Part shown: piece after piece, positions 3,162-35,640 of the stretch | How positions within the stretch are numbered: position 1 is the first letter of the stretch | Layout: each line of letters starts with the position of its first letter | Source: a virus | Length of the DNA: 35,640 nt | Reading direction: 5' to 3' (one strand) | IMG/VR virus record: IMGVR_UViG_3300044535_002285 | Location: 1 to 35,640 of that record | The notes under the pieces: model-generated | Database searches by the model: none | Seen by the model: only the letters and a program-made list of their open reading frames with translations | Told to the model about the DNA's origin: nothing | Program-made: the position numbers and the translations under genes

Positions 3162-3344
3162 ATGGGATTCAACAAGAGAATTTTAAAGAAAGAAAACATT
3201 CTAAATAATCTTCCAAAACTTATGACCTATTTAAACGCCGATGCAATTATTTGTACCGACGATTTTTCACGCAAAGTTTATAGGTTATTTACCGAAGGTT
3301 TTAGTGAAGAAGAAATAATAAATATAATAAATAAAATTAAATGA
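3162..3344 (+). CDS. Small protein of unknown function (60 aa)
   Basis: Begins MGFNKRILKKENILNNLPKL and ends EEEIINIINKIK. It looks like a small helical protein with a basic start and an acidic C-terminal helix. Its stop overlaps the ATG of the glutamine synthetase gene by 4 nt (ATGA), so translation of the enzyme may be coupled to it. Confidence 0.65.
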   Translation: MGFNKRILKKENILNNLPKLMTYLNADAIICTDDFSRKVYRLFTEGFSEEEIINIINKIK

Positions 3345-4474
3345 AAATTAAGTTGGAATATGTTTGGTTAGACGGATATAAACCTGAACCAAACCTAAGA
3401 AGTAAAGTTAAGATTGTAACATATGAATCCATTAAGAATGCGTTTCTTGATGGTAAATTCCCAATGTGGAACTTTGATGGATCATCAACTTCACAGGCAG
3501 AAACAGGAAACTCAGATCGTCTTTTAAAACCTGTAAGACATTACATGCCTTCGACATTCCCATTAGAAAATAATACCGTGTATGTTTTGTGTGAGGTATT
3601 AAACCCTGACGGAACTCCACACGAATCAAATAAAAGAGCTGGTATTGGTGAAAATTTTGAAGATCTTTGGTTTGGATTTGAACAAGAGTATTTCATTCGT
3701 GAAGAAGTTAATGGAAACATTTTGGGACACAAGAGAAACATCCTTAAAGGTCAGGGTGAATATTACTGTGGTGTTGGACACAATGTTGTTGGTCGTGAGT
3801 TTGTTGACGAACATTTAAATATGTGTTTGAACTATGGGATTGATATCACTGGTATTAATGCTGAGGTTGCTTTGGGTCAATGGGAATATCAAGTGTTCTC
3901 TCAAGGTAAATTAAAAGGTGGAGACGATCTTTGGATAACGAGATATTTCTTATTAAAGATTGCTGAAAAGTATGGTTACCATATTGAACTTCACCCAAAA
4001 CCAATCACACACGGAGAGTGGAATGGTTCAGGTCTTCACACAAACTTCTCAACAGATATAATGAGACTTGAAGGGAATGAACAATATTTCATGGCATTAT
4101 TTAATGCATTTGAATCAAGACATGAAGATCATATCAAAGCTTACGGATCAAACAATCACTTACGATTGACAGGTGAATATGAAACTCAAGCAATTGATAA
4201 GTTTAGTTGGGGTGTATCTGATCGTGGAGCGTCAATTAGAGTTCCTCAGGACACGGCAAAAGAATGGAAAGGATATGTTGAAGATCGTAGACCAGGTTCA
4301 AATGCCGATCCATACAAAATCATTCGTGAGATTGTTAATTCCCTTTATGTTGCTCAACTTCTTTATGATACAAAAAATATGATGACCTCATTTGTAGATA
4401 TGGATGGTCTTACTGGAAAATACGGTACAATGTCTAACGATGAGTTATTAAAAGAATATAGAGAAGAAGAATAA
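3341..4474 (+). CDS. Glutamine synthetase, eukaryotic-type (GSII)
   Basis: Makes glutamine from glutamate, ammonia and ATP in the cytoplasm. The 377-residue protein covers the full GSII family length with all signatures: beta-grasp motif WNFDGSSTSQAETGNSD (43-59), the metal-binding FGFEQEY (111-117), YYCGVGHN (141-148), INAEVALGQWEYQV (172-185), HGEWNGSGLHTNFST (224-238), SDRGASIRVP (293-302) and EDRRPGSNADPY (314-325). All key Glu, His and Arg residues of the family are present, so it is probably active. It does not resemble GSI or the long GSIII typical of many Bacteroidota. It is translationally coupled on both sides (ATGA at 3341, TAATG at 4474). An auxiliary metabolic gene, perhaps supplying glutamine for nucleotide synthesis. 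Confidence 0.96.
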   Translation: MKIKLEYVWLDGYKPEPNLRSKVKIVTYESIKNAFLDGKFPMWNFDGSSTSQAETGNSDRLLKPVRHYMPSTFPLENNTVYVLCEVLNPDGTPHESNKRAGIGENFEDLWFGFEQEYFIREEVNGNILGHKRNILKGQGEYYCGVGHNVVGREFVDEHLNMCLNYGIDITGINAEVALGQWEYQVFSQGKLKGGDDLWITRYFLLKIAEKYGYHIELHPKPITHGEWNGSGLHTNFSTDIMRLEGNEQYFMALFNAFESRHEDHIKAYGSNNHLRLTGEYETQAIDKFSWGVSDRGASIRVPQDTAKEWKGYVEDRRPGSNADPYKIIREIVNSLYVAQLLYDTKNMMTSFVDMDGLTGKYGTMSNDELLKEYREEE

Positions 4475-8517: not shown

Positions 8518-8570
8518 ATGAGAAATAAATTAAATTTAAAAGAAGGAGAAGTCCAAAGAATCTTATCATT
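8518..8570 (+). repeat. Direct repeat, copy 1 of the shared 5' end
   Basis: The first about 50 nt of this gene recur almost unchanged at 9378-9430, including the start codon. Together with the matching 3' block this marks a tandem gene duplication. Confidence 0.85.
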
Positions 8571-9366
8571 ACATAAAAATGCTATATTAAAAGAGAGTGG
8601 TAAAAACATTTTGAATGAGGAAAGTACTTTTACTTTAAAATCAGATGTAAAATTCAAACCTAGCGAAACGAATCCGTCTTCTAACAAAATAAGGTTATAC
8701 CAAGGAACTAAGTTCAAAGTATCCACAAAAATTAAAAATTCATTAGTATCCACAAGAAAAGTTCTTGCAAATTTTCCTTCTTATGCTTCTGGATACCTTT
8801 CTACAAGTTATGAAGATAATAGGGCTTTTGTTGTATATAACTGTAAAACAAAAAATATTTATTTAATTGGATCTACAAATGAAGGAGCTAAAGAAGACTA
8901 TGACATTAACTCTAATAAAAAGGCTACTTGGAAAACTGGAGGAAGTATGCAATCTTTAGATAAATTGTGTGAAGAATCGGTTGTTAAAAATCAAGAGGTT
9001 ATCAAACCAGAACAGAAGAAACTAACAGATGATGAAAAAATTAAAAAGGCTAAAGCATGTGGACATAAAACTTGGGAAGATTATCAAGCATCAGGATGGA
9101 AATGTAAAAAAGAAAACCAAGGAGGAGAAACTGGAGATTTAAGAAATGGGACTAGTAGTAACAGATACACATTCGATTTCGAAACAATTATGAAAGCCAT
9201 TGACGATACAGGTAAATGCCCAAGAAGTGGAACAAGCGATCAAGCAGGTACTTCAGGAACGAGTGGAGTACAAGGAACTCAAGGTACAAGTAATGTTGGG
9301 GCTCCTGTTGTAATACAAAAACCAACTGTAACAAAAGATGACTTCTATCAATGGACAATGGATTAA
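8518..9366 (+). CDS. Gly-Thr-Ser repeat protein, tandem paralogue 1
   Basis: The 282-residue product has three parts. The N-terminal segment MRNKLNLKEGEVQRILSLHK ends in ILKE|S (23-27) and ILNE|E (31-35). A middle domain (about 35-160) is beta-rich with two Cys. The C-terminal part carries KAKACGHKTWEDYQ/GWKC, then FDFETIMKAIDDTGKCPRSG, a GTSGTSGVQGTQGTS repeat and the end DDFYQWTMD. Gly-Thr-Ser repeats are frequent in tail-fibre and structural proteins of Bacteroidota phages. There is no signal peptide. The next gene is a close paralogue; a virion role is likely but not shown. Confidence 0.85.
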   Translation: MRNKLNLKEGEVQRILSLHKNAILKESGKNILNEESTFTLKSDVKFKPSETNPSSNKIRLYQGTKFKVSTKIKNSLVSTRKVLANFPSYASGYLSTSYEDNRAFVVYNCKTKNIYLIGSTNEGAKEDYDINSNKKATWKTGGSMQSLDKLCEESVVKNQEVIKPEQKKLTDDEKIKKAKACGHKTWEDYQASGWKCKKENQGGETGDLRNGTSSNRYTFDFETIMKAIDDTGKCPRSGTSDQAGTSGTSGVQGTQGTSNVGAPVVIQKPTVTKDDFYQWTMD

Positions 9367-9376
9367 ATTTTAAAAA
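9186..9376 (+). repeat. Direct repeat, copy 1 of the shared 3' block
   Basis: The last about 180 nt of the gene at 8518 and a few bases beyond its stop recur at about 10020-10221 with few changes and a short insertion in the Gly-Thr-Ser region. The similarity here is far higher than in the middle of the two genes. Confidence 0.85.
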
Positions 9377-9377
9377 A

Positions 9378-10211
9378 ATGAGAAATAAATTAAATTTAAA
9401 AGAAGGGGAAGTCCAAAGAATATTGGGCTTACACAAACAAGCTATTTTAAAAGAAAATAATTATCAAGTATTGAATGAAGAACAAACATTTTCTCTAAAA
9501 GTTAATACAGATTTTAAACCATCAAGTAGTAATAGCGAGGATTACACTCTTAGACTTTATAGAGGTACAACATTTAAACCATCACCAAATATAAAAAATT
9601 CTTTAGTCACAGATAGACAAGTAAGAATTGATTATGTGTATGGTATGTTTAATTCTACTGCTGGTGCTTCCGGACTTAATAATAAGGCTTTTGTGGTTTA
9701 TAATTGTAAGACAAAAAGAATGTATACCGTCCAAAATACAAAAATAGATGAGTTTGATTATAAAAAAACAAATTGGACATATGATGCTAAGAATATGAGG
9801 TCCTTAGATAACTTGTGTTTAAATGCTGTTGAGACGGTAAAACCTGAGGTTGTGGTAAAACCTAAAACGGATGATGAAAAAAAAGAAAAGGCTAAAGCAT
9901 GTGGACATAAAACTTGGAAAGATTATCAAGCATCTGGATGGAAATGTAAAAAAGAAAACAAAAAAAATACATTTCTTGCTGCCGGAACAAGTGGAACTAG
10001 ATACTCATTTGATTTTGAGACAATAATGAAGGCAATTGACGATACAGGTAAATGTCCAAGAAGTGGAACAAGCGATCAAGCAGGTACTTCAGTAACGAGT
10101 GGAGTACAAGGAACTAGTGGAACTCAAGGTACAAGTGGTGTTGGTGCTCCTGTTGTAATACAAAAACCAACTGTAACAAAAGATGACTTCTATCAATGGA
10201 CAATGGATTAA
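9378..10211 (+). CDS. Gly-Thr-Ser repeat protein, tandem paralogue 2
   Basis: Paralogue of the preceding gene. ATG 9378 is chosen over the in-frame ATG at 9351 because it restores exactly the same N-terminus, MRNKLNLKEGEVQRILGLHK. The 277-residue product keeps the (I/L)xE sites (ILKE|N), the CGHKTWKDYQASGWKC element and a nearly identical C-terminal 65 residues, while residues about 35-160 have diverged strongly. The repeat reads GTSGTQGTSGV, with one more GTSG unit. A terminator follows directly, so 8240-10211 forms one unit. Confidence 0.85.
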   Translation: MRNKLNLKEGEVQRILGLHKQAILKENNYQVLNEEQTFSLKVNTDFKPSSSNSEDYTLRLYRGTTFKPSPNIKNSLVTDRQVRIDYVYGMFNSTAGASGLNNKAFVVYNCKTKRMYTVQNTKIDEFDYKKTNWTYDAKNMRSLDNLCLNAVETVKPEVVVKPKTDDEKKEKAKACGHKTWKDYQASGWKCKKENKKNTFLAAGTSGTRYSFDFETIMKAIDDTGKCPRSGTSDQAGTSVTSGVQGTSGTQGTSGVGAPVVIQKPTVTKDDFYQWTMD

Positions 10212-11370: not shown

Positions 11371-12621
11371 ATGAGAAATATTGTTATCACCGAAAATCAA
11401 TTAAAATTAATTACAGAAGCTTTAGGGGTTCCTGAAAATATTTTGGACGCCGCCGACATGTTATACGATATTGTTGAAAAAGACATAAAATCAATAGATA
11501 GTGTCGAAGATGAATATGAATTTGATGGTGATATTGAATTTGAGTTAGGTGATAAGAAAAAAGTCAAAATTGATTCATATGAACTTAAAGTTAATATTGA
11601 AGAAATTGAAGACCAAGAAGGTGTCTTAGATATTATTTCTATGGGAATGGGAGGTGGTTTTGGATTTAATAGAGATGTTTATATGAAAGAAACAGAACCT
11701 TCAACAACTTTGGAGCTCAGTATAACTTTTGCTGTTGGTGAAAATTGGAGACCTGAACAACTGATTCAAAAAATGGAGGAGGAAAGAGATGAACATGTTT
11801 CATCTTTGGCTCATGAGATCAAACACAAATACGATAAGCAGTCAAAACAATTTGGTTTAATAGGACCTGATGCTGACTATCAGGCGACACAAAGAAGAGG
11901 TAATCTTGGAATACCGGTAATTGATAGAGTGTTCTACAGATACATGTATTACATTCATGCGATTGAAAATCTTGTTAGACCAACAGAGGTTGCTTACTCA
12001 ATGAAAAGAAAAAATATTACAAAATCACAATTTAAAGAATTTTTAGAAAATAATAGAGTTTATACAGAGTTGTTAGAAATTAAAAACTTTTCATTTGATG
12101 ATTTTATTACACAGTTAAAAGAACAAGAAGAAAGATTAGACAAACTTATTGAACATGTTAATGAGGATCCATCAAACATGACTATTGATGAAAAAATAAA
12201 CAGAGTGTTGGAAATTACTTATATTGATTTAGTAAACAACAGAATGGAATTGTTTACAATTATGACGGAGCATGCTATGGATGACTTTTTAAGATTTGGT
12301 TCGCAACTAGGGTTGTTGCCTAGTAATGCGGAAGAAAAAGTCAAACAACTTGAAAAGACAGACAAGATTAGAAATAAGTTTTTATCTCAAACAATTAAAT
12401 ATCAAAAAAACCCAACCAAGTTTTTTGAAAATGAATTTGAGAGATTTCAATATGTTGCAAACAAAATGTTAAAGAAAATATCTAAACTATATGCTATGGC
12501 TAAAGATGACGAACAAGTTAGTGAATCAATTCTAAATTGGGATCTACACCAACAAATCATGGAAAAAAAATACGGTAAAAGAAAAATTGAAACAAAATAC
12601 AAAAATTGGAATCTTAAATAA
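11371..12621 (+). CDS. HExxH zinc metalloprotease-like protein
   Basis: The 416-residue protein contains LAHEIKHKYD (HEIKH at residues 148-152), the zinc-binding and catalytic motif of zincin peptidases. A later Glu (E199 in AIENLVRPTE or E206) could be the third ligand. The C-terminal half is helical and charged. The N-terminus MRNIVITENQLKLITE|A looks like the (I/L)xE-terminated segments of the neighbouring proteins and of T4 internal head proteins, so it may be packaged in the virion or act during head maturation (inference). I do not recognise the peptidase family more closely. No signal peptide. Confidence 0.75.
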   Translation: MRNIVITENQLKLITEALGVPENILDAADMLYDIVEKDIKSIDSVEDEYEFDGDIEFELGDKKKVKIDSYELKVNIEEIEDQEGVLDIISMGMGGGFGFNRDVYMKETEPSTTLELSITFAVGENWRPEQLIQKMEEERDEHVSSLAHEIKHKYDKQSKQFGLIGPDADYQATQRRGNLGIPVIDRVFYRYMYYIHAIENLVRPTEVAYSMKRKNITKSQFKEFLENNRVYTELLEIKNFSFDDFITQLKEQEERLDKLIEHVNEDPSNMTIDEKINRVLEITYIDLVNNRMELFTIMTEHAMDDFLRFGSQLGLLPSNAEEKVKQLEKTDKIRNKFLSQTIKYQKNPTKFFENEFERFQYVANKMLKKISKLYAMAKDDEQVSESILNWDLHQQIMEKKYGKRKIETKYKNWNLK

Positions 12622-12979
12622 ACTATTGGTTTTTATACCTTTAATATTATTATCGTTTATTTTAACAACCCCCGAATACAGAGGAACCGCATCTTATTAT
12701 GGCCAACATTTGACAGGAAGATTAACATCCTCAGGAGAAAGATTTTATGCCGATAGTTTAACCGCAGCCCACAAGTATCTCAAGTTCGGAACAATTTTAA
12801 AAGTTACTAACACAATTAATGACTCAGTTTGTTATGTTAAGGTGAATGATAGATTACCAAAAAGTTCTAAGTTTATTATTGATCTAAGTTACGGAACGGC
12901 AAAAAAATTAAATTTTCTTAAAAGAGGAGTGATACCTGTAATTTTAATTCCTGTTGATACCGTAAAAATTGTTAAATAA
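12587..12979 (+). CDS. RlpA-like double-psi beta-barrel protein
   Basis: The frame starts with TTG 12587 (no ATG is available) and overlaps the metalloprotease gene by 35 nt. The N-terminus has a basic region and a hydrophobic stretch (KLLVFIPLILLSFIL), a signal peptide or anchor. The mature part matches the RlpA core: GTASYYG, TSSGERF, LTAAHKYLKFGT, VTNTIND, VKVNDRLP and IDLSYGTAKKL. RlpA proteins are septal lytic transglycosylases; the Asp of VNDR is kept. The SPOR domain of bacterial RlpA is missing, as in short family members. It likely cuts or binds peptidoglycan in the periplasm, helping lysis or wall remodelling. Confidence 0.85.
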   Translation: MKQNTKIGILNKLLVFIPLILLSFILTTPEYRGTASYYGQHLTGRLTSSGERFYADSLTAAHKYLKFGTILKVTNTINDSVCYVKVNDRLPKSSKFIIDLSYGTAKKLNFLKRGVIPVILIPVDTVKIVK

Positions 12980-13138: not shown

Positions 13139-15004
13139 ATGAAGAATATATTGATTGTATTTTTTGTCCTATTTTCATCTTTTTTATTTTCTCAATCATG
13201 TCTTCACACTATTCAACGAACTGACACATGGGGTGATGGTTGGAATGGAGGAGCGGTATCCGTTTCTGTTAATGGTGTAACCGTTTTATCTAATTTAAGT
13301 TGTGTGGGGTACGGACCTACTAGTTCTACATTTATGGCGGCAGTAGGGTCAACAATTAGAGTATTCCGAACCACTGCAGGACTTTATCCTACAGAAATGC
13401 GCATACGAGTTCTCAATGGTGCGGGAACCACCATAATCAATACTATTCAACCGGTTGCTGGAACCGCAACTACGGGAGGACAAACCGTATTAGCAAGTTG
13501 TGCGGGAGCTGTTGCAGGTCCATGCACTAATACAACTTTATATGGGTCTGCAATCGCACCATCAACACCAACAACTGTAATCATTAGTACTTGTCAATTT
13601 CAAGGAGAATATAGTCCAATTTATTCTTGTATTGCAGGACAAACATATCAATCAGCTTACAATTTAGGTGGATTCATAACGGTTAGATCAGGAACATTTA
13701 ATGGTACTGTAGTCGCCAGCGGAAACGCCCCATTAAATTGGGTTTGTCCGTCCTCAGGAACATATTTCGTTCATTACAACACAAATAATACTTGTGGTAC
13801 CGCTATGAACTGCGGAACATCATCTATTTCTTGTATAACTTGTTTACCACCACCACCACCATCAAATGATTTAGTTTGTAATGCAACAACAATATCTTGT
13901 GGTCAGACGATTGCAGGGACTACGGTTAATGCAACAACATCAGGTTATGGAGAATTGGGGTCTTGTGGTATTGTTCAGTCATATCCCGGTGTTTGGTATA
14001 AGATAATAGGAAATGGACAGATTATGACGGCATCACTTTGTGTTACCGCATGGGATAGTAAGATTTCTGTTTTTTCAGGAACCTGTTATTCACTTACATG
14101 TGTTGGTGGTAATGATGATAACGGACCTGGTTGTGGGGGAACTTCAGCATCATACTCTTGGAACTCGGTTAATGGGACAACATATTGGATTTTAGTTCAT
14201 GGTTATTCATCAAACTCTGCGTTTTCCGTGTCTTTAAATTGTGTTAATCCACCAACACCAGGACCATGTACAAACACAATAAATTATGGAGCTCAATTTA
14301 TGCCTGTGTTAGGTGGAGCACCATATGAATCTATTTATTGTCAATACGCTGGAGAATACTCAACATGGTATAATGCAATTTCAAATACACCTTATGTTGC
14401 AACTTCTTCAGTTGGAACAGATTGGATTACGGTTAGACAAGGGACTTACAATGGTACGGTTCTTGCAACAGGAACGGCAGTTGTTAATTTCACACCAAAC
14501 GCCACAGGAACAATATTTATTCATGTTAACACAAATGCTTATTGTGACATCCAATCAAGTTGTAGGGATGTTGCAATGTCAAGAATATCTGCATTACCTA
14601 TTGAGTTATTATATCTTGAAGGTAATAAAGAAAGTAATTATAATTTAATAAGATGGGCAACTGCGACTGAACATAATACCAGTCATTTTATTGTTGAAAA
14701 AAGTGAAGATGGACATGAATGGAATTCAATAGGTGAAGTTCAGGCTTCACAAAACTCCACTCAAGAAATTAAATACAATTTAATTGATCAAAATGTAAAA
14801 CAATTATACAATTATTATCGTCTTAAACAATATGATATAGACGGGATGAATCAAACTTACGGGCCAATTCAGATCAATAATACTGATAAAGTAATTACCG
14901 TAATAAAAAGAATTAACTTAGCAGGACAAGAAGTTAATGAAAACACCACAGGAGTTGTTATTGAAATTTATAGTGACGGATCTATAAAAAGAACAATAAA
15001 ATAA
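13139..15004 (+). CDS. Secreted multidomain protein with T9SS-like C-terminal region
   Basis: A 621-residue protein from ATG 13139; the in-frame GTG at 13070 would bury the signal peptide. Residues 1-19 (MKNILIVFFVLFSSFLFSQS) are a Sec signal. Then come a Cys-containing beta domain (TDTWGDGWNGG), two repeats starting GPCTNT with TVRxGTxNGTV cores (about residues 122-235 and 376-490), a PPC-like domain between them, and a C-terminal region (ALPIELLYLEG, YYRLKQYDIDG, then INLAGQEVNENTTG and IEIYSDGSIKRTIK) like those of T9SS-exported Flavobacteriales proteins. It should be exported to the host surface. Function unknown; adhesion or surface masking is possible. Unusual in a phage and probably taken from a host. 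Confidence 0.85.
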   Translation: MKNILIVFFVLFSSFLFSQSCLHTIQRTDTWGDGWNGGAVSVSVNGVTVLSNLSCVGYGPTSSTFMAAVGSTIRVFRTTAGLYPTEMRIRVLNGAGTTIINTIQPVAGTATTGGQTVLASCAGAVAGPCTNTTLYGSAIAPSTPTTVIISTCQFQGEYSPIYSCIAGQTYQSAYNLGGFITVRSGTFNGTVVASGNAPLNWVCPSSGTYFVHYNTNNTCGTAMNCGTSSISCITCLPPPPPSNDLVCNATTISCGQTIAGTTVNATTSGYGELGSCGIVQSYPGVWYKIIGNGQIMTASLCVTAWDSKISVFSGTCYSLTCVGGNDDNGPGCGGTSASYSWNSVNGTTYWILVHGYSSNSAFSVSLNCVNPPTPGPCTNTINYGAQFMPVLGGAPYESIYCQYAGEYSTWYNAISNTPYVATSSVGTDWITVRQGTYNGTVLATGTAVVNFTPNATGTIFIHVNTNAYCDIQSSCRDVAMSRISALPIELLYLEGNKESNYNLIRWATATEHNTSHFIVEKSEDGHEWNSIGEVQASQNSTQEIKYNLIDQNVKQLYNYYRLKQYDIDGMNQTYGPIQINNTDKVITVIKRINLAGQEVNENTTGVVIEIYSDGSIKRTIK

Positions 15005-27750: not shown

Positions 27751-28193
27751 TGAGAGATTTAACAAACTTCAGAATCATCAGATTCGAATACCCATTTCCA
27801 ACTGAAGAACTTACGGTAAGAATTTGGGACAAGATGAATGAAACTGAAACAAAATGGGCAATCCAATTGACCTTGAAAGGAATTAATGATACAGGTGATT
27901 CACCTATGGGATCTTGGGATATATTTTTCTTGGATGATAAGTTACAAGAAAAAATTGAAGAGGTGTTGAAAAAATATGATGTTCCATATAAAACAGATGA
28001 TCACGGAAATAAATTACTTGATGATCTTGAATACTTCTCAAAAGAATTTTTAGAAAAACTAGATTCATACTTAGGTGAGAATTTGACTATTGATGATATT
28101 TTGGATAGAATTTTAGAGGTAGGTTATGAAAACATAACTGTGTTTGAAAAATACTATTTAGGAAACAACATTGAGATAAGAGAGAAAAAATGA
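27750..28193 (+). CDS. Acidic protein of unknown function (147 aa)
   Basis: Begins MRDLTNFRIIRFEYPFPTEE, with a beta-rich first half (IWDKMNETETKWAIQLTLKG) and an acidic helical second half. No motif recognised. Overlaps the repeat-protein gene by 4 nt. Confidence 0.75.
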   Translation: MRDLTNFRIIRFEYPFPTEELTVRIWDKMNETETKWAIQLTLKGINDTGDSPMGSWDIFFLDDKLQEKIEEVLKKYDVPYKTDDHGNKLLDDLEYFSKEFLEKLDSYLGENLTIDDILDRILEVGYENITVFEKYYLGNNIEIREKK

Positions 28194-29254
28194 AAAATCC
28201 ATCAGGAAATAAATTAGAGAAACTTGTCTTTGGGATGTTTGACCAAATGGTTGAAGGTGCCGACAAGTATGTGACAAAACAGGGTTCAACTTGGTTGATA
28301 TTCACAGAAAGTAAAAAATGGGTGATTGAGTTCACAAAAGATAAAACTTTATGGTTCAACTATAATATATTTCAAGTTGAATTGGAACTAATCGGTAAGG
28401 ACTGCACCGAAGAAAAAGATTTGATTAAGAACTGGTTTGAATCAAGATTTTTGGGTATTAAACCTGTTGAAGACACCATTGAAAATGGGGTGAAAGAAAC
28501 AACACCTAGTGGTTATTTGGGGTCAATAGAGATGAAAGGTAAAATAGTTCATCAAATTGAATCTCCAAAACAAAATAATGAGGTTGAAGACGCTATTCAA
28601 AATGGGGTAAAAGAGACCCGTTTTCAAAAGAGTAGTAATCTTTACCGTATTGAAGATACTAGAACACTATGGGGAAAAAGTGGTGACGAAGGAGTCGTTG
28701 AATACATCATTCAAGAGGGGGTGAAGGACATCAAGCAAGGAACACACTTACCAATTCATCTAGTTGAAGACACCATTCAAAATGGGGTGAAGGACATCAT
28801 AGATCCATTTTGGGTGGATCCCGTTAGAATTAAAGATGCCATTGAAAATGGAGTAAAAGAAACCAAAGAGAATAGACTTATTCGTACCATAAGTGTTATA
28901 AGTACAATTAAAAATGGTGTTAAACATGTTGAAGATGGTGATTGGTTAGACCAAGATGAAAGGATAGACGACATTATTGAAAATGGTGTTAAAGAGATTA
29001 AAGAAATTTCAAATATTAGTTTAATGTCTGAAATTTTTAAGGTTAATTCGAACCGAGCGATAAGAGATGGTGTTAAAGAAATACAACCACTACCAGCCCA
29101 AGATGGTAATAGAGATTGGGGATTATATTACCATAGACAAGAAGATAGAACAAAACCACATACAGAATATGTGAAAGAAGTAATTGAAGATTCTTACAAC
29201 CATAGAGGTAGAGTTGAAGGTGTAATTAGAAATACAGATAAAGATGGGATTTGA
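28190..29254 (+). CDS. Repeat protein with eight (V/I)xDxIxNGVKE-type motifs
   Basis: A 354-residue soluble protein. Residues 1-90 form an N-terminal domain (KLVFGMFDQMVEGADKYV, STWLIFTESKKWVIEF). Residues 93-298 carry eight copies of a motif such as VEDTIQNGVKD, with the Gly of xGVK at 100, 139, 177, 199, 221, 243, 266 and 294. The four gaps between 177 and 266 are 22-23 residues, so the regular unit is about 22 residues; the outer copies are spaced 28-39. I do not recognise the repeat. It looks like a short alpha-turn solenoid, perhaps for binding. Context (small unknown genes, ThyA nearby) gives no function. Confidence 0.85.
   Translation: MKNPSGNKLEKLVFGMFDQMVEGADKYVTKQGSTWLIFTESKKWVIEFTKDKTLWFNYNIFQVELELIGKDCTEEKDLIKNWFESRFLGIKPVEDTIENGVKETTPSGYLGSIEMKGKIVHQIESPKQNNEVEDAIQNGVKETRFQKSSNLYRIEDTRTLWGKSGDEGVVEYIIQEGVKDIKQGTHLPIHLVEDTIQNGVKDIIDPFWVDPVRIKDAIENGVKETKENRLIRTISVISTIKNGVKHVEDGDWLDQDERIDDIIENGVKEIKEISNISLMSEIFKVNSNRAIRDGVKEIQPLPAQDGNRDWGLYYHRQEDRTKPHTEYVKEVIEDSYNHRGRVEGVIRNTDKDGI
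28466..29083 (+). repeat. Coding repeats of the NGVK motif (eight copies)
   Basis: Eight degenerate repeats at the protein level; at the DNA level the core reads AATGGGGTGAAAGA or close variants in several copies (for example near 28484, 28600, 28781), suggesting expansion by local duplication followed by drift. Confidence 0.8.
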
Positions 29255-33950: not shown

Positions 33951-35640
33951 ATGAAACAATTGAAAGGTCTGTTATTTGGACTTTTATTTTTATTACCGTT
34001 TATCGGTAAAGCTCAAGTACCTGCGGCACCATCAAATGGATTGTGGGGTATCATTGCATCCCAATATCAAGTTGGGACAACGGCACAAGGCACAACTGAT
34101 GCGAAGATTACATTACAAAACACAACCCTTACAAAATTTGCGGGGGTTCAGTTTAGAGTATTCTACGATAAGGTAGCGTTTACAAATGCAACAGTATCTC
34201 TTATTGGATCGGCAACAAACTTAGACCTTCAGTTTATTACAAACACAACGAATGGTTTCATTACCATTACTTTGGTTTATACAGGTCCAAGTGCAACTTA
34301 TACGATCCCAAATGGTGAGAGATTTCTAATTACCTTTACTCATGCACCAGCAGCTACATTTAACAACTTAGCTTCCATATCCAACTTAACTTGGACAGGA
34401 CCTCAGTCTTTTACACCGTACGCTGCGAAACAAGATGGTATGGATACTACATTAAGTGTTCATAACTATGGTGGTGTATTCACTCCTGTTAACTTCGCCT
34501 ATCATGGAACATTCACAAATGTTACAGGTACTTCGGCTAAATATTTAAATTTAGCATTACAAAGAAGACCATTCGGCGGAAACACTTGGACGCAACATTC
34601 TACTTATGTTACAGATATCAACGGAGACTTCAATATTTCAGTTCCATTGGATACAACATATTGGGATGTAAGATTAGCAATTCAAGGTGATACAATGGGT
34701 GTGGGTAATATTATTTCATCAACAGATGCTCAACAAATCAATCAGTGGGTTCTTGGAAACGGTACCATGACTGGTTTTGATTATTATACGGCAGATGTTA
34801 ACGGATCTAATAATACAACAATATCTGATGTGTGGGGTGTATTTGGTAGAATCTCAGGTAGATTTACTCAATGGCCTAACAACACAAAAGATGTTAAGTT
34901 CTTTACTGTATCTGAATACACAACAATCAACGGATCGGCAACTAACTACACATCAACAATTGCAGGTGTAACAAACTTTACATTTGACATCTTACCGGGT
35001 CAACCTGACTCTGTGGTTTATTATGTTATGGTTCCTGGTGATGCTAACGGTACAGGTTACAACATGGCTCGTGTTACTCCTATTGAAGTATTGGTTGGAC
35101 CAATGCCAGGTTTAGAGTCACAAATCTATAATGTGATCGATACTAAAGTTGAGTATGATTTTCCAACATCAACAATCGAAGTAAATGTACCTAACATTTC
35201 TGTGGATGCTGGAAACTTGGTTGAGTTACCCGTTAAAGTTTTTACAAATGGAAATGAGTTATCATCACTTCAGTTTGGATTGAAATATAATACAGACCTA
35301 TTAGAATTCAAAGGAGTTAACTCAACATCAAATGCTATGCAATGGATTACATACATAAATCCAAATGATGGCCAAATTGATTGGGGTGGATTCGACCCTA
35401 CAAATAACGAACAACCATTAGTTAATGGTGATGAGGTTGTTACTTTACAATTTATAGCAAAACAACCACAGAATCTATGGGAAGAAAGTCCTCTTTATAC
35501 TTCTTTGAAGTTTGCAGGAACAACTCAGTCTAACGATTTAACAATTACACCGACAAACGGAATACTCCAAGTATTAAAAAGTAATATGGGTGTGGTAATT
35601 GGAAACACAATCTCTGTAGTTCCTAATCCTGTTGTTGATG
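33951..35640 (+). CDS. Large secreted protein with cohesin-like and dockerin-like parts (C-terminus cut)
   Basis: ATG 33951 opens a frame to the window edge (563 residues visible). The start MKQLKGLLFGLLFLLPFIGKAQ is a Sec signal peptide. Beta-sandwich regions at about 30-140 and 390-520 resemble cohesin-like adhesion domains (LKYNTDLLEFKGV). Between them are dockerin-like segments with STDAQQINQWVLG and ADVNGSNNTTISDVWGVFG, the latter a possible calcium loop. The last visible residues, ISVVPNPVVD, are the usual opening of a T9SS type A sorting domain. It is probably exported to the host surface. With the protein at 13139 it is the second such gene in this window. Function unknown. Confidence 0.85.
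   Translation, partial: MKQLKGLLFGLLFLLPFIGKAQVPAAPSNGLWGIIASQYQVGTTAQGTTDAKITLQNTTLTKFAGVQFRVFYDKVAFTNATVSLIGSATNLDLQFITNTTNGFITITLVYTGPSATYTIPNGERFLITFTHAPAATFNNLASISNLTWTGPQSFTPYAAKQDGMDTTLSVHNYGGVFTPVNFAYHGTFTNVTGTSAKYLNLALQRRPFGGNTWTQHSTYVTDINGDFNISVPLDTTYWDVRLAIQGDTMGVGNIISSTDAQQINQWVLGNGTMTGFDYYTADVNGSNNTTISDVWGVFGRISGRFTQWPNNTKDVKFFTVSEYTTINGSATNYTSTIAGVTNFTFDILPGQPDSVVYYVMVPGDANGTGYNMARVTPIEVLVGPMPGLESQIYNVIDTKVEYDFPTSTIEVNVPNISVDAGNLVELPVKVFTNGNELSSLQFGLKYNTDLLEFKGVNSTSNAMQWITYINPNDGQIDWGGFDPTNNEQPLVNGDEVVTLQFIAKQPQNLWEESPLYTSLKFAGTTQSNDLTITPTNGILQVLKSNMGVVIGNTISVVPNPVVD

What the first reader, a model, noticed from the sequence alone, without database searches (positions are those of the whole stretch)
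13139..15004. Phage-encoded protein with T9SS-like export signal
A 621-residue protein has a Sec signal peptide, beta domains including a duplicated one, and a C-terminal region (from ALPIELLYLEG to IYSDGSIKRTIK) of the kind found on type IX secretion cargo in Flavobacteriales. T9SS cargo is well known in bacteria but hardly described in phages. It suggests that the phage displays its own proteins on the infected cell, for example to block adsorption, alter adhesion or gliding, or mask the surface.
Basis: partly seen in the sequence, partly recalled or inferred. Interest (0 to 1): 0.82.

Follow-up and report, generated by a model that had tools for sequence, protein, structure and literature searches.

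The report
Phage protein exported by host T9SS
A large phage of a Bacteroidota host encodes a multi-domain secreted protein ending in a short, uncatalogued C-terminal tag also found on hundreds of its likely hosts' exported proteins; close relatives of the phage carry the standard type IX secretion signal in the same place, so the phage very probably uses the host's secretion machine to put its own protein on or outside the cell.

Summary
The ORF is real (13139-15004, 621 aa): signal peptide, duplicated beta domain, FN3-like LPxEL domain, about 40-residue tail. The tail matches no T9SS profile (TIGR04183, TIGR04131, Pfam). (i) Same-locus orthologues in other phage contigs carry a canonical type A CTD. 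In one pair about 90-96% identical in DNA on both sides, only the 3' part of the gene differs: short tail in one, type A CTD in the other. (ii) The tail occurs in 198 of 299 genomes of one Flavobacteriales-type order. It sits at the exact C-terminus of diverse exported bacterial proteins, sometimes behind the same LPxEL domain. It resembles type A motif D weakly. (iii) The window holds a second cargo gene (33951 to end), cut just at its CTD. Its homologue ends in a full type A CTD, as does a relative in the cultured Flavobacterium phage immuto. Synteny over many contigs excludes a chimera; Gp23 capsid genes on syntenic contigs confirm phage. Phage T9SS cargo was already noted in Cryophage and crAss-like phages. 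New here: the tail class, the natural swap, and its conservation in large T4-like phages. Surface function is inference.

The parts
13139..15004 (+). CDS of 621 aa, predicted T9SS cargo (stop codon included)
   Evidence: translation; 33 homologous loci in viral contigs; synteny
13139..13195 (+). Sec signal peptide, residues 1-19 (MKNILIVFFVLFSSFLFSQ)
   Evidence: sequence pattern; kept in the full-length homologues; helix 2-16 in the model
13196..13504 (+). DTWGDGWNG beta domain, about residues 20-122
   Evidence: conserved columns; homologous region in a bacterial cargo protein of G280
13523..13843 (+). duplicated beta domain, copy 1, about residues 129-235
   Evidence: internal match of copies in homologues; DNA repeats D1/D2
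13865..14242 (+). beta domain resembling PPC-like domains (resemblance recalled, no Pfam hit), about residues 243-368; the DNA swap point lies at its end
   Evidence: bacterial homologues 50-67% over this region; swap breakpoint
14267..14578 (+). duplicated beta domain, copy 2, about residues 377-480
14591..14878 (+). LPxEL domain, FN3-like, residues 485-580, the module that precedes type A CTDs in many Bacteroidota cargo proteins
   Evidence: AlphaFold2 pLDDT about 90, closest folds FN3
14882..15001 (+). short C-terminal tail, residues 582-621, predicted sorting signal
   Evidence: alignment of 28 tails; 198/299 genomes of one order; exact C-terminal position; swap with type A CTD
33951..35640 (+). 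second predicted T9SS cargo gene, open at the window end, cut at the start of its CTD (SVVPNPVVD)
   Evidence: 81% identical over 401 aa to the protein in L208/L209, whose records have a full type A CTD; homologue in cultured phage immuto
12587..12979 (+). neighbouring exported RlpA-like (DPBB) protein directly upstream; not shown to act with the cargo
   Evidence: PF03330 1.3e-15

Best explanation
The gene encodes a phage cargo protein for the host's type IX secretion system. Sec carries the precursor to the periplasm (inferred from the signal peptide). The about 40-residue tail, which keeps a motif-D-like stretch (N-x-x-G-Q-x-V) and a basic C-terminal beta hairpin in the position of motif E but lacks motifs A-C, is then read as the sorting signal, and SprA-type translocons export the protein (inferred from interchangeability with type A CTDs and from use of the same tail by host proteins). 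Outside, the string of binding-type beta domains is anchored or released and most likely acts as an adhesin or lectin-like coat of the infected cell, for instance limiting superinfection or altering cell contact; this last step is a guess with no direct evidence (the confidence below is for T9SS export, not for this role).
For: Natural swap: L008 and L015 align at about 90-98% DNA identity along the locus, including the first 1095 nt of the cargo gene and the downstream flank, but the 3' part is unrelated: LPxEL plus short tail in L008, Ig_7 domains plus LPxEL plus type A CTD in L015; the L015 record's CTD is over the TIGR04183 cut-off (G602). 9 of 17 aligned orthologues have TIGR04183/PF18962 CTDs. 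The tail is found in 198/299 genomes of the order of G001, up to 21 per genome, ends 0-2 residues before the stop in the bacterial loci read, which mostly begin with a signal peptide and carry unrelated passengers: CotH, PHA depolymerase/esterase, AhpC-TSA, LRR, beta-propeller. A bacterial chromosomal protein has the same LPxEL + tail. The tail profile matches type A motif D at P = 0.0006. G001 carries SprA. Phage identity: conserved gene order in many contigs and Gp23 on syntenic 273 and 292 kb contigs. Second cargo in the same window, with a type A relative in cultured phage immuto. A review reports that the last 22 residues (motifs D and E) of the HBP35 CTD suffice to secrete GFP (PMC10202324).
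Against: The tail itself matches no curated T9SS model, and profile comparison with type A is weak and local (hhalign probability 29%; only 1% with the smaller profile). No experiment on this tail was found. Tail presence was not shown to depend on T9SS: the phylum sample has too few tail-bearing genomes (5, all with SprA, against 77% background). Host not identified. Passenger function not determined; in some relatives the tail-bearing gene sits right after the major capsid gene, which leaves room for a virion role.
Confidence: 0.74

Rival explanations
1. Virion adhesin: the protein is a decoration or fibre of the particle, and the C-terminus is only a fold borrowed from bacterial surface proteins.
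For: Multi-domain beta architecture; in L134, L140 and L142 the tail-bearing gene follows the Gp23 gene closely; weak PHROG tail-protein match over the FN3 part, E 0.005-0.02.
Against: Conserved Sec signal peptide in the full-length members, which would remove the protein from the cytoplasm where virions assemble; in the window lineage the neighbours are RNA ligase, kinase, Nudix and methylase genes; tail conservation and swap with export CTDs.
Confidence: 0.1
2. Exported across the inner membrane only: a periplasmic or outer-membrane protein whose tail is a stability or anchoring element, not a T9SS signal.
For: No CTD profile match; only weak similarity to type A; no T9SS dependence shown.
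Against: The same gene carries a type A CTD in near-identical phages; tails sit behind the LPxEL module that normally precedes type A CTDs; second cargo in the window.
Confidence: 0.12
3. T9SS cargo as above, but serving the host during a long infection (adhesion, nutrient binding) instead of protecting against other phages (a rival on function, not on export).
For: Passenger domains are shared with ordinary host cargo (54% over res 5-470 in G280); second cargo has a cohesin-like region named so in phage immuto.
Against: No evidence for or against a host benefit; a strictly lytic large phage would have little time to gain from it.
Confidence: 0.3
4. Assembly chimera or bacterial contamination.
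For: Passenger and tail are of bacterial kind.
Against: Same gene at the same locus, with conserved flanks, in independent contigs; Gp23 on the same contigs; related genes in huge phage genomes and in a cultured phage.
Confidence: 0.01

Closest known systems
T9SS type A C-terminal domain (TIGR04183 / PF18962)
   Same: Sec signal peptide plus C-terminal signal; same preceding LPxEL module; motif-D-like stretch; swapped with it at the same phage locus
   Different: About 40 residues instead of about 70-100; no motif A (FPNP) or B/C; below detection by the models
Cryophage T9SS-tagged cargo (PMC7468147)
   Same: Phage-encoded proteins with T9SS sorting signals, variable between phage variants
   Different: 76 kb Bacteroidetes phage with type A domains on an endoglucanase, a GH39 and a PA14 protein; here large T4-like phages and a new tail class
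T9SS sorting domains in crAss-like BACON phages (PMC6949934)
   Same: T9SS sorting-domain proteins near the head genes of Bacteroidetes phages
   Different: Noted in passing, different passengers
Flavobacterium phage vB_FspM_immuto gp014/gp015
   Same: Homologue of the window's second cargo; gp015 ends in a type A CTD (4.6e-13)
   Different: Split over two ORFs, each with its own signal-like N-terminus; no short tail found in that genome

Membership tests
T9SS type A cargo | N-terminal Sec signal peptide | tested here: met
   Sequence pattern and conservation only; no predictor available
T9SS type A cargo | C-terminal domain matching TIGR04183 / PF18962 | tested here: not met
   No match for the window protein; 9 of 17 orthologues match
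T9SS type A cargo | Export depends on the T9SS translocon | not testable with these tools
   Needs a T9SS deletion strain
T9SS type B cargo | TIGR04131 match at the C-terminus | tested here: not met
   NCBIfam scan without hit up to E 1
T9SS type C (ChiA-like) cargo | Match to the type C sorting model | tested here: inconclusive
   NCBIfam scan without any hit, but whether that library holds the type C model was not checked
Short-tail exported proteins (class described here) | About 40-residue tail at the exact C-terminus of a secreted protein | tested here: met
T4-like large phage | Gp23-type major capsid protein in the genome | tested here: inconclusive
   Found on contigs syntenic with the window (G600, G605), but not on the window, which is a fragment

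The most novel reading that the evidence does not exclude
The tail is a further T9SS sorting signal, reduced to the D/E end of a type A CTD, used by many proteins of a Flavobacteriales-type order, overlooked by present models, and taken up by large phages, in which it is exchanged with full type A CTDs as a cassette.
Probability: 0.6. Interest if true: 0.75.

Novelty: new variant of a known kind. Interest (0 to 1): 0.62.

Why it matters
Phages that direct their own proteins through the T9SS would have a way to remodel the surface of Bacteroidota cells during infection. The natural tail/CTD swap gives a ready pair of constructs to ask which part of a CTD the T9SS really reads. If the tail is a sorting signal, the T9SS secretome of a whole bacterial order is undercounted by current annotation. 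A cultured phage-host pair (immuto / Flavobacterium sp. LMO8) with a related type A cargo makes the phage question testable.

Tried and rejected
PDB sequence search of the full protein: no hit. Foldseek with the full-length model: model too weak (pTM 0.32), matches not used. Foldseek with the C-terminal model: FN3 folds mainly, none at E <= 0.001, no T9SS CTD structure among the 50 rows shown. A test of tail against T9SS presence by SprA over the phylum was uninformative, because the tail is almost confined to one order. tblastn of an LPxEL plus type A segment in the phage collection found only the four huge phage genomes already known. Chimera considered and rejected.

Full report
Observation. 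The ORF at 13139-15004 exists as described, 621 aa with a signal-peptide-like N-terminus. The order is: signal peptide, DTWGDGWNG domain, duplicated domain copy 1, a PPC-like domain (resemblance recalled, no Pfam hit), copy 2, LPxEL domain, tail. The duplication shows in protein and in DNA, spaced 750 nt.

The named test fails on its face. The protein and its last 137 residues match no NCBIfam model, and the protein matches no T9SS Pfam model. It does not, for four reasons.

First, homologues. 33 loci in viral contigs encode relatives. Of 17 aligned homologues, 9 end in a canonical type A CTD; the other 8, including the window, end in the short tail. L008 and L015 are close relatives: DNA identity is about 96% upstream, 91% through the first 1095 nt of the cargo gene, and 90-96% downstream, yet the rest of the gene does not align. 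One ends in the tail, the other in a type A CTD. The breakpoint falls near the end of the PPC-like domain. The same pattern holds for L003 against L015. I read this as exchange of C-terminal cassettes, which makes most sense if both ends do a similar job. This is inference, not proof.

Second, the tail in bacteria. A tail profile built from 28 sequences matches 198 of 299 genomes of the order of G001, the genome of a MAG titled Flavobacteriales bacterium (L034), with up to 21 copies per genome, but only 5 of 296 genomes over the phylum. In the loci read, the tail ends 0-2 residues before the stop, and most complete ORFs begin with a Sec-type signal peptide. The passengers are unrelated: CotH, esterase/PHA depolymerase, AhpC-TSA, LRR, beta-propeller. 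Some bacterial proteins have LPxEL plus tail exactly as in the window.

Third, likeness to type A. A larger comparison (60 tails, 67 type A CTDs) aligns the tail's N-L-x-G-Q-E-V stretch with motif D, P = 0.0006, hhalign probability 29%; the smaller one gave nothing. AlphaFold2 models the last 137 residues well (pLDDT 90): a seven-strand FN3-like domain and three further strands in the tail. A review states that the last 22 residues of the HBP35 CTD, motifs D and E, suffice to secrete GFP (PMC10202324), which fits a D/E-only signal.

Fourth, a second cargo. From 33951 to the window end runs an open frame with a signal peptide, cut at SVVPNPVVD, the usual start of a type A CTD. It is 81% identical over 401 aa to a protein of L208/L209, whose records score 1.1e-15 and 6.4e-15 for TIGR04183. 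Those same records, G604 and G600, also hold the short-tail gene. A homologue in the cultured Flavobacterium phage immuto is split in two ORFs, the second ending in a type A CTD at 4.6e-13.

Is it phage? The window is a 35.6 kb virus record with RNA ligase, thymidylate synthase, ClpP-like protease and endolysin genes. Gene order is conserved with many contigs. Of 23 related records, 8 carry a Gp23 match, including the syntenic G600 (292 kb) and G605 (273 kb). Four huge phage genomes of 462-642 kb also hold type A CTDs, and one of them a clear short tail.

What it does outside is unknown. The domains look like binding modules and share ancestry with host-type cargo (54% over residues 5-470 to a bacterial chromosomal protein). 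A surface adhesin or coat is my best guess. In another lineage the tail-bearing gene follows the capsid gene closely, so a virion role is kept as a rival.

Known work. T9SS-tagged proteins in phages were reported for Cryophage, which the authors called unique (PMC7468147), and in crAss-like phages (PMC6949934). A review lists CTD types A, B and C (PMC10202324); the literature searches run here found no description of this short tail, within an open-access library only. Hence a new variant of a known kind.

Noticed in passing
33951-35640: Second, truncated T9SS cargo gene with a cohesin-like region, next to endolysin-type genes.
   Followed up: yes
12587-12979: Exported RlpA-like (DPBB) protein directly upstream of the cargo gene.
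   Followed up: partly
8518-10211: Two tandem, similar ORFs (282 and 286 aa) of unknown function.
   Followed up: no
3341-4474: Glutamine synthetase-like gene in a phage (PF00120, PF03951), kept at 76-89% in syntenic contigs.
   Followed up: no
28190-29254: Protein with many imperfect repeats of the kind 'IENGVKET'.
   Followed up: no
11371-12621: Conserved neighbour of the cargo gene with an HEIKH motif (AHEIKHKYD), possibly a metalloprotease; no supporting family match.
   Followed up: no
L219 (G617:96267-96449): Subtilase-like protein with a type A T9SS CTD on a 176 kb viral-collection contig; no Gp23 found there, so its phage nature is not checked.
   Followed up: partly
L253:11598-13422: In phage immuto the second cargo is split over two ORFs (gp014, gp015), each with a signal-like N-terminus, beside a signal-bearing C-type lectin domain protein (gp013).
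   Followed up: partly
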